The position numbers were made by a program, and so were the translations under genes. A stretch of DNA of 32,276 bases from Flavobacterium aurantiibacter (GTDB taxonomy: Bacteria; Bacteroidota; Bacteroidia; Flavobacteriales; Flavobacteriaceae). The notes under the pieces were generated by a model. That model was given only the letters and a program-made list of their open reading frames with translations. It was not told the origin of the DNA and made no database searches. The stretch lies in contig NZ_NOXX01000185.1 in the NCBI RefSeq assembly GCF_002251775.1, positions 638 to 32,913 on the forward strand, given 5' to 3'. This document shows, piece after piece, positions 13,427 to 31,976 of the stretch (within the stretch, counting starts at the first letter, position 1; each line of letters starts with the position of its first letter).

Positions 13427-13480
13427 GAGTGTGGTAGTAGAAAATGATTAAAATGCAAGATGCGAACTGTTTGCGGTAGT

Positions 13481-14413
13481 TCACGGTGCTAAAAAATCGA
13501 AGTATTTTGTGTGTAGATAATCATTAGGTTCAAATGAAATCAGCTCATTTTTAAAGTCTAAAGTGATATTAAATCTTTTTAAGAACGAGTTACCTATAAT
13601 GCCGTCAATTCCATTTATGTTCATAATTCCATTTTGGATTTGAGCCACACCGCCAGGGATTTTATAAAAATGGAAATCTGCGATATTTATCTGTGGAAAA
13701 TAGACATTAAAGATTTTTCCAGTATTTCCGTCACTGCTGGTAATATTTGAAACAGCAAAGCATTGCTTATAAACATCCAAAAGTTTGTTTAAATTAACAT
13801 AACTGGTACTTAAGTCTAGGATTCTGTCGCTACCCGTATCTATTTCGAGGCATACGTTTCTGGTTTTGCCATCTATAGTTTTTATTCGGATATCCACAAA
13901 GGGAACTCGCTCTTTATATTTGAATTTGATGGTATTTTGCTTTTGATTTTTAAACGAAACTTTATCAAAAAGATATACCAGTTTTTTGTCGTAGTTTATT
14001 TCAATACAAAACCTTTTTAAAAGAGATAAACCTAAAACACCATCCCATAACTCATTTGGGTATGGAATGGATATAAAACTCAAGTTGTCAATTTCTTGAA
14101 GCCCCCATTTTGCCTTGTTGCCTGAGCTTTTTTTAACGATATTTATTCCTGTGGTTCCGCTGTTTGTTTCCTCAGAATCAAAGTTTAATTTTAATTTTTT
14201 CTTAGTGATAATCTCACTATTTATAACCATGTCGCTTGCTCCTGTATCGATGAGAAATAGTAATGAATCGACATCGTTTACTTTAACATATGTGTAGATT
14301 CTATTATCGCTCTTTAAGAAAAACTGAATAGAGTCGATCGGTTTAGATTGACTAAAAGCTTCGCCAAAGAATAGTAGGACAGCAAGTACATGGATCGTTT
14401 TCCAAATTTTCAT
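13481..14413 (-). CDS. Secreted two-lobed aspartic protease (retropepsin/pepsin-like fold)
   Basis: A 310-residue protein with a signal peptide (cut near GEAFSQ). It has two aspartic-protease active-site motifs: DTGAS at Asp56 within LLFLIDTGASDMVI, and DTGSD at Asp192 within VCLEIDTGSDRILDL. Each is followed about 70-80 residues later by the hydrophobic-hydrophobic-glycine partner motif (DGVLGLSLL, 124-132; DGIIGNSFL, 270-278). One chain therefore holds both halves of the catalytic site, as in pepsins, whereas retropepsin-like bacterial proteins often have a single lobe. The substrate is unknown. No T9SS tail is visible, so it is probably periplasmic or released by another route. The base composition is more AT-rich than in the neighbours. 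A second secreted protein is encoded 57 bases upstream on the same strand. Confidence 0.85.
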   Translation of the reverse strand: MKIWKTIHVLAVLLFFGEAFSQSKPIDSIQFFLKSDNRIYTYVKVNDVDSLLFLIDTGASDMVINSEIITKKKLKLNFDSEETNSGTTGINIVKKSSGNKAKWGLQEIDNLSFISIPYPNELWDGVLGLSLLKRFCIEINYDKKLVYLFDKVSFKNQKQNTIKFKYKERVPFVDIRIKTIDGKTRNVCLEIDTGSDRILDLSTSYVNLNKLLDVYKQCFAVSNITSSDGNTGKIFNVYFPQINIADFHFYKIPGGVAQIQNGIMNINGIDGIIGNSFLKRFNITLDFKNELISFEPNDYLHTKYFDFLAP

Positions 14414-14470
14414 TTTCTAAAACTTTTATTTTTTAGTTACTGATAATCAATTATTTACTATTCTTGCTCG

Positions 14471-14992
14471 TTAGAATGTAATGGAGTTAAAGAAATTCTC
14501 GCTTTCCGAGTTGTTCGCCTTTCCTTGTATGTTTACAAAGAGAAAATTGTAACTGTAACTCCCTTTCACGAATATTAAAGCGTCTATTATATTCGGCAGT
14601 TCTTTGGTAGGCTTTTGTAGTTCTAACTTAATTTTTAATGAGTTTTCGCCTTTAAAGTTTATAATTTCAGATGATAACAAATTAGCCTTATTTCCTTTGC
14701 TATTCATCCGTTCCATGAACAGGTCTTCAATAGTTTTAAAAACCTGTTTGTTTTTTATACCCTCTTTTATCACATCGGGCGTAAATAAATCAGATAAGTT
14801 GTTTTCAATAATAATAAGGTTGTAGTTTTTTTCGATATTTTTTGAAAAGTAAACTTGTACATTATCTTGTTCTGATTTCTTAGGTTCATTGGACACCGTG
14901 ACACTGATGTTATTATGGAGTTTAATCACGTTATCTTGTGCATGAGCGGCTGATACTACGATTAAGAAGGCAACGAAAATGATTCTTTTCAT
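14471..14992 (-). CDS. Small secreted protein of unknown function
   Basis: The start is chosen at 14992, which gives MKRIIFVAFLIVVSAAHAQ, a clean signal peptide; a longer in-frame start at 15043 would add 17 charged residues in front. The mature protein is about 155 residues, lysine- and asparagine-rich, with alternating beta-strand-like stretches (IKLHNNISVTV, NVQVYFSKNI, YNLIIIENN, SLKIKLELQKP, YSYNFLFVNIQGKA). This somewhat recalls PsbP/DUF1795-like alpha-beta proteins, but no motif proves it. It has no cysteines and no lipobox. It precedes the aspartic protease gene on the same strand, so the two may form an operon. Function unknown. Confidence 0.75.
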   Translation of the reverse strand: MKRIIFVAFLIVVSAAHAQDNVIKLHNNISVTVSNEPKKSEQDNVQVYFSKNIEKNYNLIIIENNLSDLFTPDVIKEGIKNKQVFKTIEDLFMERMNSKGNKANLLSSEIINFKGENSLKIKLELQKPTKELPNIIDALIFVKGSYSYNFLFVNIQGKANNSESENFFNSITF

Positions 14993-15477
14993 GATTTTTC
15001 TGTTTTTACTTTTGATACATTTCTCTTGAATGTTGACAGACAATTGTTACTTACCGCTCGTGTTTAAATAGTCGTATTTTTTATATGTTTTCTGTCGTCT
15101 TTTATTTGAAATGGTCAGATTTTCAACAGTGAAGAACTAGTGTTTAGTAGAGAATACAACGAAGTTTTTAGAATTTGCAATGTTATTTTAGGTTTGCACA
15201 AACACTAAGGTTGCCGCTTAACCATGTATTTTAGTTTTTGTTTGAAGCTTAATTGCATTGTGCAAAAAAATCAGAAAACACGAATCGCAAGCATCTAGAA
15301 AACTGTTGCAAACGTATGGTAGTTTGAAAAGTAACACTTGTCAAAAGTTGCTACTTTTTTATTTTAATGAATTTCTAGAATAGATGGAAGAAGCGTTTAA
15401 ATGCCAGCTCTTTCTACTTAGTTGTATAGATTGTTTTGTACCCGATTCAAATCGTGATTAACTCAACGTGGATCTGA
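14993..15477. other. AT-rich intergenic stretch without recognisable gene
   Basis: No coding frame on either strand has plausible codon use or a recognisable product, and no tRNA fold was found. It contains a possible -7 element TAGGTTTG at 15189-15196 and an AT-rich hairpin with a T-tail at 15327-15360, listed separately. The promoter of the small secreted protein gene should lie at its left end but could not be located. Confidence 0.5.
15327..15360 (+). terminator. Possible orphan terminator in the intergenic stretch
   Basis: AAAAGTA (15327-15333) pairs with TACTTTT (15352-15358), with further partial pairing inside (C-G, A-T), and the 3' arm ends in six Ts. No plus-strand gene precedes it, so if real it would end a small RNA. 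A TAGGTTTG at 15189-15196 could start such an RNA of about 155 bases. Confidence 0.3.
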
Positions 15478-15479
15478 TT

Positions 15480-15661
15480 TTTCCGCGTAAGCGACGGCAG
15501 CGGAAAGCTTGCGCGAAACGGGCTTAGCAATTGCGGTTTGGTGCGGCGACCAACGGAAGCCCGTGCCAAAGCTTGCAATTGCTTGGCTCGGTTGGTGCCA
15601 CTTGCAGCGAACGGCGCGACCCCGCCCAGCGATACATTTTCGTTAGGATGTATGCGCGGGG
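15480..15661. repeat. GC-rich, highly structured intergenic element (probable dispersed repeat)
   Basis: 109 of the 180 bases at 15481-15660 are G or C, against about 19 of 60 in 15301-15360. The element is packed with inverted repeats: TTTCCGC 15480-15486 with GCGGAAA 15500-15506; CGCGTAAGC 15484-15492 with GCTTGCGCG 15507-15515 (one T-G); ACGGGCTT 15518-15525 with AAGCCCGT 15557-15564; AGCAATTGC 15526-15534 with GCAATTGCT 15575-15583; TTGGT 15538-15542 with ACCAA 15549-15553; ACCAAC 15549-15554 with GTTGGT 15591-15596; CCCCGC 15620-15625 with GCGGGG 15656-15661; and ATACAT 15632-15637 with ATGTAT 15648-15653. Several pairings exclude each other. Such GC-rich blocks near gene ends in flavobacteria are typically multi-copy. 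The open frames crossing it show no credible protein. Confidence 0.6.
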
Positions 15662-15669
15662 ATACGCCC

Positions 15670-15702
15670 AAAAAAAACCGGAACACCTTGTAGGCATTCC
15701 GG
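15670..15702 (-). terminator. Intrinsic terminator of gap
   Basis: On the minus strand CCGGAATGCC (15702-15693) pairs with GGTGTTCCGG (15687-15678), ten pairs including two G-T, around a 5-base loop. Eight Ts follow (A-run 15670-15677 on the plus strand). It lies 28 bases past the gap stop codon. Confidence 0.92.
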
Positions 15703-15730
15703 CACAGTATAGTGGTTAGGTTAGTTTCTA

Positions 15731-17179
15731 TTAATAATAGGTGAAGCGGCGCACTTTTGAAATGTACTTTGCCAAGCGAATTACTTGGTGGCTGTAGCCG
15801 TATTCGTTGTCGTACCACACATATAAGACTACGTTTTTGCCGTCGGCCGAAACTATGGTAGCGTTGCTGTCGTAAATAGCTGGCGCTGAAGTTCCGATAA
15901 TGTCTGACGATACTAATTCGTTGTTTAAAGAATATTTTATTTGTTCGACCAGTTCGCCTTCGAGTGCGTACTTTTTCATGATTTTGTTTACTTCGTCGAT
16001 GCTGGTTTTTTTGCCAACTTCTAAGTTTAAAACCACAAGGGAACCGTTTGGAACCGGAACGCGAATGGCATTTGAAGTGAGTTTTCCGGTAAGCGACGGC
16101 AATGCTTTAGCAACCGCACTTCCGGCACCCGTTTCGGTAATAACCATGTTTAAACCCGCTGCGCGTCCGCGACGGTATTTCTTGTGCATATTATCAACCA
16201 AATTCTGGTCGTTCGTGTAAGCGTGAATCGTTTCGAGGTGTCCTTTTACAACGCCGAGCGTATCTTCAACAGCTTTTAAAATAGGTGTGATGGCGTTTGT
16301 GGTACAAGAAGCCGCAGAAAAAATATCGATTTCATCTGGGTTGTATTCGTTTTGATTAACGCCGTGAACAATATTCGGCACGCCTTTTCCAGGAGCGGTA
16401 AGCAACACTTTTGAAACGCCTTTGGAAACTAAATGACGTGCCAAGGCCTCTTGAGTGGTAAACGCACCGGTGTTGTCGATAACCAATGCATCGTCTATGC
16501 CGTACGCGGTGTAATCGATATCTTCAGGTTTTTGTGCTGTAATCAAATGAACTGTTGTGCCATTGATAATCAATGCGTTATTTTCGGTGTCGGCTACAAC
16601 CGAACCTTGGAAATCGCCGTGAATCGAGTCGTAACGCAGCAAAGACGCTCTTTTTTCGATGCTCACGGCGTCGTTTTGATCACGCGTTACTACGGCTCGC
16701 AAGCGCAACTGGTTTCCCTTGCCCATTTTCGACATCATTTCGCGTGCGAGCAAACGGCCAATGCGTCCGAATCCGTAAAGAACGACATCTTTTGGTGTGA
16801 TATCGGCCGATGATTTGGCGCTTTTAAGCTTGTCGATGACAAAAGCTTTGGCATTGCTGTATTTATCGTCTTCCATGTGGAATTCGTAGGTCAGTTTTCC
16901 TAAGTCGAGTTTGCTTGGTGGCAAATCTAGGCTCAGTACCGCTTTTGCGATTTCAACGGTATCGAAGACACTGATGGGTTTTCCGACAAATTCGCCGGCG
17001 TATTCGTGCAAATTGATAATGTCGCTGACCGTTCTATCGATAAGTTGGTTGCGAAAGAGTACCATTTCGATGGATTTTTCGTACCATAAATCGCTAATAG
17101 TCTTGATTAATTCCACACCGGCTCTGCGTCGGTCCGCCTGAAAAGTCAGCTCCTTTTCATACATTGCGTTGGTTGTCAT
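15731..17179 (-). CDS. gap: Glyceraldehyde-3-phosphate dehydrogenase, long form with N-terminal extension
   Basis: This enzyme of glycolysis/gluconeogenesis oxidises glyceraldehyde-3-phosphate with NAD(P) and phosphate. The NAD-binding motif VVLYGFGRIGRLLARE begins near residue 132. The catalytic cysteine is Cys292 in SAASCTTNAITP and the partner histidine is His319 in ETIHAYTNDQ. The C-terminal WYDNEYGYSHQV is intact. The protein has 482 residues, against about 335 for the usual enzyme; the extra part is a helical N-terminal domain of about 130 residues (ADRRRAGVELIKTISDLWYEKSIEMVLFRNQ). Bacteroidota often carry this form beside a standard-length one. It is transcribed alone from a good promoter overlapped by a palindrome, and ends at a strong terminator. 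Confidence 0.94.
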   Translation of the reverse strand: MTTNAMYEKELTFQADRRRAGVELIKTISDLWYEKSIEMVLFRNQLIDRTVSDIINLHEYAGEFVGKPISVFDTVEIAKAVLSLDLPPSKLDLGKLTYEFHMEDDKYSNAKAFVIDKLKSAKSSADITPKDVVLYGFGRIGRLLAREMMSKMGKGNQLRLRAVVTRDQNDAVSIEKRASLLRYDSIHGDFQGSVVADTENNALIINGTTVHLITAQKPEDIDYTAYGIDDALVIDNTGAFTTQEALARHLVSKGVSKVLLTAPGKGVPNIVHGVNQNEYNPDEIDIFSAASCTTNAITPILKAVEDTLGVVKGHLETIHAYTNDQNLVDNMHKKYRRGRAAGLNMVITETGAGSAVAKALPSLTGKLTSNAIRVPVPNGSLVVLNLEVGKKTSIDEVNKIMKKYALEGELVEQIKYSLNNELVSSDIIGTSAPAIYDSNATIVSADGKNVVLYVWYDNEYGYSHQVIRLAKYISKVRRFTYY

Positions 17180-31763: not shown

Positions 31764-31976
31764 TCAGACGATTTGTTGAATAATTGCCGTTTTTTCAAAG
31801 ACGTATTTCGCGCGAACGGGTGCAGTGATATCCTTTTTGGCGTTACGTTTTTTCCAGTATCGTTTAGCCAAAAAGATAAAACGGAACACGTGACGGCAGA
31901 GCAGGAACGTGGCGCAGCGATGATTTGTATTGCCGGCGCGCCCAAATAAAGGTAAGTCTGCAAAAAAATCTGCTTT
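31764..31976. repeat. Region open on both strands; probable dispersed repeat or gene remnant
   Basis: The minus-strand frame 31976-31764 is open for 70 codons and looks protein-like (HVFRFIFLAKRYWKKRNAKK, then FEKTAIIQQIV before the stop) but has no ATG; its only plausible starts are GTG or TTG well inside. The same codon register on the plus strand is open too, from the end of hisS to the stop at 31947-31949 (DKTEHVTAEQERGAAMICIA). No known domain is recognised in either. It is locally richer in G and C than the DNA on its right. It could be a decayed gene or one copy of a family of intergenic repeats; no single coding call is supported. Confidence 0.4.

What the first reader, a model, noticed from the sequence alone, without database searches (positions are those of the whole stretch)
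15480..15661. GC-rich multi-hairpin intergenic element with mutually exclusive pairings
In a 61% GC island (109 of 180 bases counted) inside DNA of about 32% GC, at least eight inverted repeats of 5-9 bases interlock. The 9-base AGCAATTGC/GCAATTGCT pair crosses the 8-base ACGGGCTT/AAGCCCGT pair, so a knotted or switching fold is possible. In one arm pair the only deviation is a U-G on the plus strand, which would be A-C on the other, hinting that the plus-strand RNA is the folded form. It ends 9 bases from the gap terminator. It may be a dispersed repeat (REP/BIME-like), a mobile MITE-like element or a structured RNA. It is the strongest non-coding signal in the window.
Basis: partly seen in the sequence, partly recalled or inferred. 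Interest (0 to 1): 0.65.

Follow-up and report, generated by a model that had tools for sequence, protein, structure and literature searches.

The report
Long dispersed variant of Flavo-1 RNA
The GC-rich hairpin stretch is one copy of a large, precisely built family of folded repeats scattered between Flavobacterium genes, apparently a long form of the orphan "Flavo-1" RNA that behaves like a small mobile element.

Summary
Window 15485-15677 is one copy of a dispersed element; its apex motif occurs 68 times in its own genome and 56 in a sister species. Copies share a 24-nt 5' core, ~38-nt arm, 15-nt apex GCGACCANNGGAAGC, ~38-nt arm and 3' core, and fold into one rod: 40 of 49 pairs show compensatory changes (score 0.530 vs 0.194 shuffled, 0/500). 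The window copy belongs to a subclass (17 of 50) with a covarying outer helix, implying a three-way junction. The rod's base is Rfam Flavo-1 (RF01705): the window copy scores below cut-off (27.8 vs 42 bits), but long copies in two other genomes score 57-59. Seven element-only similarities at unrelated loci suggest dispersal. The plus strand folds better in 46 of 50 copies; no firm orientation to genes was found. No mobilising enzyme was identified: Y1 linkage is at background, and the own genome has no RT or IS110 hit. A new variant of a known kind; mechanism unproven.

The parts
15485..15489 (+). closing helix, 5' strand (GCGTA), pairs with 15663-15667
   Evidence: a 5-bp closing helix followed by a CC-type end is present in 15 of 17 copies of this subclass vs 3.8 mean in shuffles, 0 of 1000 reach it
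15485..15508 (+). 5' core (Flavo-1-like base of the rod, contains GCAGCGGAAAGC)
   Evidence: both cores over the thresholds in 50 of 59 scored copies; RF01705 match, subthreshold 27.8 bits
15509..15545 (+). 5' arm of the rod, 37 nt
   Evidence: 5' arm is 37-40 nt in all 50 retained copies; compensatory pairs
15546..15560 (+). apex GCGACCAACGGAAGC: GC/GC and CC/GG pairs around a GA/AA internal loop, triloop
   Evidence: 68 occurrences at <=1 mismatch in the own genome, 0 for the reversed pattern; GCGACCANNGGAAGC in 122 of 199 genus genomes
15561..15599 (+). 3' arm of the rod, 39 nt
   Evidence: 3' arm is 36-41 nt in 49 of 50 retained copies
15600..15619 (+). 3' core (ACTTGCAGCGAACGGCGCGA), partner of the 5' core
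15620..15661 (+). extra 3' hairpin that would make the three-way junction (CCCCGC 15620-15625 / GCGGGG 15656-15661; ATACAT 15632-15637 / ATGTAT 15648-15653)
   Evidence: sequence and MFE fold; a stem of 6 bp or more in this region in 16 of 17 subclass copies vs 12 of 33 others
15663..15667 (+). closing helix, 3' strand (TACGC)
15668..15677 (+). 3' border CC + A8; family border CCC followed by an A-rich run
   Evidence: position frequencies in 23 copies
15678..15702 (-). terminator-like hairpin of gapA, abutting the element (neighbour, not part of it)
   Evidence: inverted repeat I3, followed by T8 on the minus strand
15731..17179 (-). gapA (glyceraldehyde-3-phosphate dehydrogenase), neighbouring gene
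   Evidence: PF02800 and PF00044
13433..15478 (.). 2046 bp without a counterpart in the sister species at this place; its edge coincides with the element's 5' end
   Evidence: blastn window vs L070

Best explanation
The feature is one copy of a dispersed, intergenic, non-coding element: a long, GC-rich form of the Flavo-1 family, here with an extra hairpin that implies a three-way junction. Shown: a rod of about 150 nt with fixed arm lengths; compensatory evolution of the stems; invariant internal-loop and apex bases; one strand that folds better; many copies; sister-species copies at shared and at unrelated loci. Inferred: the element spreads as a non-autonomous mobile unit. Its plus strand, as RNA or as single-stranded DNA, folds into the rod, and a trans-acting protein (not identified) recognises the purine loops, the apex and the T/A-rich borders and copies or moves it. 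Copies that lose the fold stop spreading, which would explain why the stems drift mainly by compensation. At this site it appears to sit passively between the gapA terminator and a segment missing from the sister species; no host function of the copy was shown.
For: Copy number: 68 apex motifs in the own genome, reversed control 0; 56 in the sister genome, control 0; present in 122 of 199 genus genomes. Geometry: 50 of 59 scored copies keep both cores; 5' arm 37-40 nt in 50 of 50, 3' arm 36-41 nt in 49 of 50, (38,38) in 23; also 13 of 19 loci of other genus genomes and 26 of 36 sister-genome rows pass both core thresholds, 0 of 400 random positions do. Covariation: 40 of 49 pairs, 251 double-changed cells vs 98 shuffled, score 0.530 vs 0.194 (0 of 500), slid versions at most 0.180. 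Subclass closing helix 15 of 17. Folding asymmetry in 46 of 50 copies. Flavo-1 link: window copy 27.8 bits, E 0.027; five hits of 144-146 nt in two genomes score 56.8-59.1, four of them with GCGACCNNNGGAAGC (two with A at the first N) and arms of 38-41 nt. Dispersal: seven pairs of loci from the two species match over the element (160-215 bp, 87-94%) and otherwise only in scraps of 30-51 bp. Close pairs without known assembly gaps are 5'-to-5' inverted, 8 of 8 (seven of them read through, and G222 C411 not fetched).
Against: No clean empty site of a long copy was found. Of five sister-species copies queried, four had one flank located in the own genome: one locus ends inside the element, one holds a different long copy without the exact apex at the same spot, and two lack it there but with unrelated sequence on the other side. 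The same genome pair does show clean empty sites for an unrelated repeat. Gene conversion between copies could also give element-only similarity. No enzyme was found: RAYT-like loci carry a Flavo-1 over the cut-off in 2 of 25, about the background; the own genome has no RT and no IS110 hit at E<=1e-5. The window copy itself is below the Rfam cut-off. Its MFE fold replaces the outer rod helix by a local 5' hairpin, so the three-way junction is not its predicted minimum. Three sister-species substitutions in the rod's 3' arm have no matching change in the 5' arm. An eighth similar pair (L168/L196) turned out to share flank as well and is not counted.
Confidence: 0.62

Rival explanations
1. A functional structured RNA (cis-acting UTR element or independent sRNA) of the gapA region or of many host genes, multiplied in the genome because it is useful.
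For: Strong covariation and one better-folding strand. The element at gapA differs from the sister species at 5 of 191 columns (plus one gap), while fourfold sites of gapA differ at 57 of 213. Rfam types Flavo-1 as Gene; sRNA.
Against: Nearby non-coding DNA is about as conserved (2 of 62 and 6 of 123 columns). Orientation to genes is mixed: the downstream neighbour's 3' end faces the element in 36 of 52 long and 17 of 24 short copies here, but in 10 of 19 and 10 of 19 in two other genomes. In F. psychrophilum, Flavo-1 hits lie indistinctly sense or antisense to transcribed regions and many are outside them (PMC9723704, passages read). None of the 79 other gapA loci fetched from named records has the apex motif.
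Confidence: 0.17
2. An old repeat family that no longer moves; copies are reshuffled by homologous recombination and gene conversion and serve as rearrangement breakpoints.
For: One site holds different long copies in the two species (L156/L293). Homology breaks lie at or beside element borders at window 15479, L156 and L160. No clean empty site of a long copy was found.
Against: Presence/absence differences at L160/L290 and L161/L292 and element-only pairs of up to 94% identity suggest gain or loss of whole units. Divergent copies with intact folds suggest continued selection on the fold.
Confidence: 0.16
3. Substrate of a Y1 HUH (RAYT/IS200-type) transposase, like REP/REPIN elements.
For: Imperfect hairpins with a GGTAACG-like 5' border, one better-folding strand, intergenic high copy number, inverted doublets. 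The own genome has two Y1 hits, 1.3 and about 2.6 kb from a Flavo-1 hit (positions).
Against: No enrichment of Flavo-1 near Y1 genes: 2 of 25 RAYT-like loci (about 2 expected if all had the G051 density, my arithmetic) and 0 of 15 IS200-like loci over the cut-off. Some genomes with 41-65 Flavo-1 hits show no Y1 hit at E<=1e-5: G004, G011, G019, G044, G045.
Confidence: 0.12
4. A conformational switch with mutually exclusive helices.
For: The two helices cross in the window sequence; the window MFE uses a local 5' hairpin instead of the outer rod helix.
Against: No family support for the crossing helix or for the 5' end of the core pairing with the start of the first arm (5 of 50 vs 4.3 shuffled).
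Confidence: 0.03

Closest known systems
Flavo-1 RNA, Rfam RF01705 (Weinberg et al. 2010, PMC2864571, one table passage seen)
   Same: Same base of the rod with two 3x3 purine internal loops (alignment of L004); Flavobacteria; many copies; intermediates in G010 and G051 score above the cut-off and carry long arms and apex.
   Different: The Rfam model has 76 positions with a short hairpin arm; the apex, the ~38/38-nt arms and the subclass with an extra hairpin are not in it; the window copy scores 27.8 bits against 42.
REP / REPIN-BIME elements with RAYT transposases
   Same: Intergenic, many copies, one-strand hairpin with a 5' border motif, inverted doublets (REPIN anatomy recalled).
   Different: REPs are 20-40 bp (abstract start of PMC3733652 in the listing); this is about 150-190 nt with fixed geometry; no RAYT linkage found.
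BOX, RUP and SPRITE repeats of Streptococcus pneumoniae (PMC3049150, abstract and outline read)
   Same: Dispersed repeats with extensive secondary structure, judged parasitic, now inserting slowly.
   Different: Other phylum; no sequence or structure comparison was made here.
ERIC sequences, integron attC sites, HEARO / omega RNAs (recalled)
   Same: Imperfect palindromes or structured nucleic acid tied to mobility.
   Different: Named from memory only; neighbours such as IscB, TnpB or integron integrases were not searched for. No Rfam family but Flavo-1 matched the element itself at E<=1 in the loci tried.

Membership tests
Rfam Flavo-1 (RF01705) | score at or above the gathering cut-off of 42 bits | tested here: not met
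   window element 27.8 bits, E 0.027; other long copies among the six loci tried 29.7 and 36.3
Rfam Flavo-1 (RF01705) | base helices with two 3x3 purine internal loops | tested here: met
   family-level structure with 96% and 100% of cells paired in helices 2 and 3; continuous with long copies that pass the cut-off. The window copy was not in that ungapped alignment (arms 37 and 39)
Rfam Flavo-1 (RF01705) | occurrence in Flavobacteria in many copies | tested here: met
   38 of 60 genomes (own included) with hits over the cut-off; counts limited by 65 scored candidates per genome
REP/RAYT system | RAYT (Y1) gene flanked by the repeats | tested here: not met
   2 of 25 RAYT-like loci, about background
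REP/RAYT system | 20-40 bp palindrome with GTAG or CGTC tag | tested here: not met
   about 150-190 nt; 5' border GGTAACG-like
IS-derived MITE | target-site duplication at clean empty sites | tested here: inconclusive
   four sites located, none clean
Retro-element / group II intron derivative | reverse transcriptase in the carrying genome | tested here: not met
   0 PF00078 hits at E<=1e-5 in G000
IS110 bridge RNA | IS110 recombinase in the carrying genome | tested here: not met
   0 PF02371 hits at E<=1e-5 in G000
Expressed sRNA or cis-regulator | transcription from the plus strand with a function | not testable with these tools
   no RNA data for this organism; in F. psychrophilum no clear pattern (PMC9723704)

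The most novel reading that the evidence does not exclude
Flavo-1 is not a conventional sRNA but a genus-wide class of mobile structured elements. Its full-length form is a precisely measured rod or three-way junction recognised on one strand by an unknown mobilising protein, and the familiar 76-nt Flavo-1 copies are its short-armed relatives.
Probability: 0.35. Interest if true: 0.75.

Novelty: new variant of a known kind. Interest (0 to 1): 0.52.

Why it matters
Flavo-1 has been listed as an RNA of unknown function since 2010. The long form gives it an anatomy (rod, invariant apex, measured arms, a subclass with an extra hairpin), separates what is conserved from what drifts, and makes two testable claims: that it moves as a unit, and that one strand folds for recognition. 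A repeat that keeps its fold by compensatory change while its sequence diverges is also missed by ordinary searches: blastn with the window copy found one other full-length copy in its own genome, whereas the apex motif occurs 68 times, and further copies lack the exact motif.

Tried and rejected
Y1/RAYT linkage: about background. I took 40 loci, 25 RAYT-like with weak Y1 scores and 15 with strong scores, some from other genera of the order; other listed Y1 hits were not taken. Searches used the Rfam cut-off, so weaker copies (e.g. 40.2 bits at C130:1930, inside L250) were not counted; an apex scan of the 25 found none.

Replichore sorting of copies, suggested by early rows: the full lists for two complete chromosomes (59 and 81 hits) read as mixed by eye; no statistic was computed. 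Orientation relative to genes: the first count (37 of 52) looked biased, but two other genomes show none, and the small null (about 9 kb of element-free gaps) is itself rich in 3' ends, so no rule is claimed. A target-primed reverse transcription idea based on the A-run and the terminator T-tract was dropped for the same reason and because the genome has no RT hit.

RT and IS110 as mobilising enzymes: no hit in the own genome. Carriage on plasmids or phages: no blastn match at 1e-5. Viral contigs: the apex 15-mer is not enriched (53 stretches vs at least 120 for the reversed pattern), and 0 of 53 have both cores. MAFFT plus RNAalifold on all 59 copies gave only the apex helix; the ungapped alignment of 23 equal-length copies was needed. 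A first test of the closing helix with too short tails was inconclusive (6 of 17 vs 3.6 shuffled) and was repeated with longer tails. The subclass was defined by a hand-made list of 5' ends, and one of the 17 (L028) does not look like it. The extra hairpin is a weaker sign than the closing helix: stems of 5 bp or more occur in 17 of 17 but also in 25 of 33 other copies; of 6 bp or more in 16 of 17 vs 12 of 33. Rows dropped before counts: 2 copies at contig ends; 9 of 59 below the core thresholds (truncated or divergent); 27 of 50 with other arm lengths, the window copy among them, from the ungapped alignment. The 68 motif hits include a few assembly duplicates (e.g. L023/L024, L033/L034); 61 distinct ones lay in the fetched loci.

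Full report
What is in the window. The GC-rich island 15480-15661 (60.4% GC, the window maximum for that length) lies between the terminator hairpin of a minus-strand gapA (15731-17179; PF02800/PF00044) and a flank of 32% GC. The plus strand folds at -89.2 kcal/mol, z -3.27; the minus strand has z -0.10. No Rfam family reaches its cut-off in the window. A 123-aa ORF on the minus strand crosses the element (15447-15818) and has no Pfam match.

It is a family. Blastn in the own genome finds one other full-length copy at 75% and many short pieces. The pieces share the motif GCGACCAACGGAAGC, which occurs 68 times at one mismatch or fewer in the 3.24-Mb genome, against 0 for the reversed pattern; a few are assembly duplicates. 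GCGACCANNGGAAGC occurs in 122 of 199 genomes of the genus, against 3 hits in all for the reversed control, and 56 times in the sister-species genome G222, which holds the gapA contig L070 (a Flavobacterium MAG, JAIXTU010000257.1).

Anatomy. Of 61 distinct motif copies in the fetched loci, 2 lie at contig ends; of the other 59, 50 have both cores above the thresholds. Their layout is 24-nt 5' core, arm, 15-nt apex, arm, 3' core. Arms are (38,38) in 23 copies and (38,37) in 8; the 5' arm is 37-40 nt in all 50 and the 3' arm 36-41 nt in 49. The same layout appears elsewhere: 13 of 19 loci of other genus genomes and 26 of 36 sister-genome rows (some elements listed twice) have both cores over the threshold, with arms of 36-39 nt; 0 of 400 random positions pass. 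In the window: 5' core 15485-15508, arm 15509-15545 (37), apex 15546-15560, arm 15561-15599 (39), 3' core from 15600.

Structure. Twenty-three copies of equal length align without gaps (the window copy is not among them). On the rod consensus, 80.9% of cells are paired; 40 of 49 pairs have changes on both sides; the covariation score is 0.530 vs 0.194 in shuffles (0 of 500) and at most 0.180 when the strands are slid. The structure was derived from folds of these same sequences, which favours it over the slid versions; the size of the gap makes that an unlikely full explanation. Seventeen of 50 copies, the window's among them, have other 5' ends than the plain rods (hand-made list). In 15 of these 17 the first five bases pair with five bases just before a CC-type end further downstream, against 3.8 in shuffles (0 of 1000 reach it); between lies an extra hairpin (6 bp or more in 16 of 17, against 12 of 33 other copies). 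This implies a three-way junction, though the window's own MFE prefers a local 5' hairpin.

Strand. In 46 of 50 copies the plus strand folds better (RNA parameters; 47 of 50 with DNA parameters), and G-T pairs outnumber A-C 36 to 16 among 644 cells of the conserved helices in the 23 copies. The minus strands still fold better than shuffles on average (mean z -2.3 vs -4.0 for plus). Copies are related, so p-values are too strong; RNA and single-stranded DNA would both give this pattern.

Relation to Flavo-1. At permissive thresholds the window element matches RF01705 with 27.8 bits, E 0.027, below the cut-off of 42. The own genome has 39 Flavo-1 hits over the cut-off, of about 70-105 nt. The link is closed by two other genus genomes: five hits of 144-146 nt score 56.8-59.1 bits. 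Four of them carry GCGACCNNNGGAAGC (two of the GCGACCANN form) with arms of 38-41 nt; the fifth (L516) has the apex with its closing G-C pair changed to A-U. Of the ten hits fetched for this test, seven carry GCGACCNNNGGAAGC; L516, L522 and L523 do not. So long copies are part of the Flavo-1 family, and the window copy is a divergent one. Flavo-1 was found computationally in 2010 (PMC2864571, one table passage read). The F. psychrophilum transcriptome paper says hits lie indistinctly sense or antisense and many are not in transcribed regions (PMC9723704, passages read). Full-text searches (listings capped at 20) showed no paper whose title or abstract start describes a long form; four papers were opened, and most subscription journals are outside that library.

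Dispersal. Between G000 and G222, some copies sit at orthologous sites with matching flanks (e.g. L154/L010, L158/L021, L178/L018). Seven other pairs match over the element (160-215 bp, 87-94%) and otherwise only in scraps of 30-51 bp: L161/L033, L150/L186, L156/L011, L164/L200, L167/L195, L171/L180, L160/L207; an eighth, L168/L196, also shares 456 bp of flank and is not counted. I queried flanks of five sister-species copies in the own genome and located one flank of four: one locus ends inside the element; one site holds another long copy with the core spacing but no exact apex, in the same place after the same gene; two lack an element there but differ on the other side (near one of these, L290, a further long copy lies about 0.7 kb beyond). 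An unrelated repeat gives clean empty sites in the same genome pair, so the absence of clean sites for long copies counts against simple insertion. At the window locus the sister species has the element too, but 330 bp instead of 2046 bp beyond its 5' end; the break is at window 15479. The element differs at 5 of 191 columns, the adjacent 3' region at 2 of 62, the gapA upstream region at 6 of 123, and fourfold sites of gapA at 57 of 213: conserved, but no more than other nearby non-coding DNA.

Context. One of 53 copies overlaps a called ORF of 200 aa or more (shorter overlapping ORFs were left out by the script). Close pairs (600 bp or less) of long copies: eight are 5'-to-5' inverted, four in G000 and four in G222, of which two are orthologous between the species; seven were read through without gaps, G222 C411 was not fetched. 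The two same-direction pairs in G000 span assembly gaps. A long and a short copy also lie 3' to 3' at C187 and C167.

Who moves it. RAYT-like Y1 genes have a Flavo-1 over the cut-off in 2 of 25 loci, about what density predicts, and IS200-like ones in 0 of 15. The own genome has no RT and no IS110 hit at E<=1e-5; it has two Y1 hits. Genus genomes G018 and G020 have no Flavo-1 at the threshold used, a starting point for a presence/absence screen that I did not run. No match was found in plasmid or phage records, and viral contigs hold the apex 15-mer without the cores (0 of 53).

Judgement. The element family, its fold and its Flavo-1 relation are well supported. Dispersal as a unit is likely; transposition in the strict sense is not proven, and gene conversion is the main rival. 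The mechanism (recognition of one folded strand by an unknown protein) is inference.

Noticed in passing
window 31805-31899 (+): A second, subthreshold Flavo-1 match (36.1 bits) near the window end (own-genome coordinates C198:32442-32536).
   Followed up: no
window 13433-15478: 2046 bp with an aspartyl-protease-like gene (13481-14413) and a second ORF has no counterpart in the sister species; one edge is the element's 5' end.
   Followed up: partly
L163:892-1111 and L175:1853-2070 (sister genome) vs L193 and L180: A separate repeat of about 220 bp with ends like TTAACNNGAGTT shows empty sites in the own genome, with a possible short AT-rich duplication; MITE-like, and related sequence also lies beside the apex motif in L026 and L031.
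   Followed up: partly
15 fetched loci, e.g. L195, L156: The palindrome GTAATATTGCAATATTAC recurs in fetched loci, which were chosen for their elements; it is not in the window.
   Followed up: no
G013 (unnamed genus genome): Apex motifs are 18 on one strand and 3 on the other over 7 contigs, mostly one strand per contig in the listed rows.
   Followed up: no
G018, G020; G024, G048: Genus members with no or one Flavo-1 hit while many relatives have 40-65 (capped); useful for finding a partner gene.
   Followed up: no
L293 (-) about 1239-1383; L290 (-) about 632-775: Own-genome copies with both cores at the right spacing (about 90 nt) but no exact apex motif, so 68 is a lower bound for long copies.
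   Followed up: partly
L290, L292: Sites that carry a long element in the sister species have unrelated neighbouring sequence in the own genome, so copies may mark rearrangement points.
   Followed up: partly
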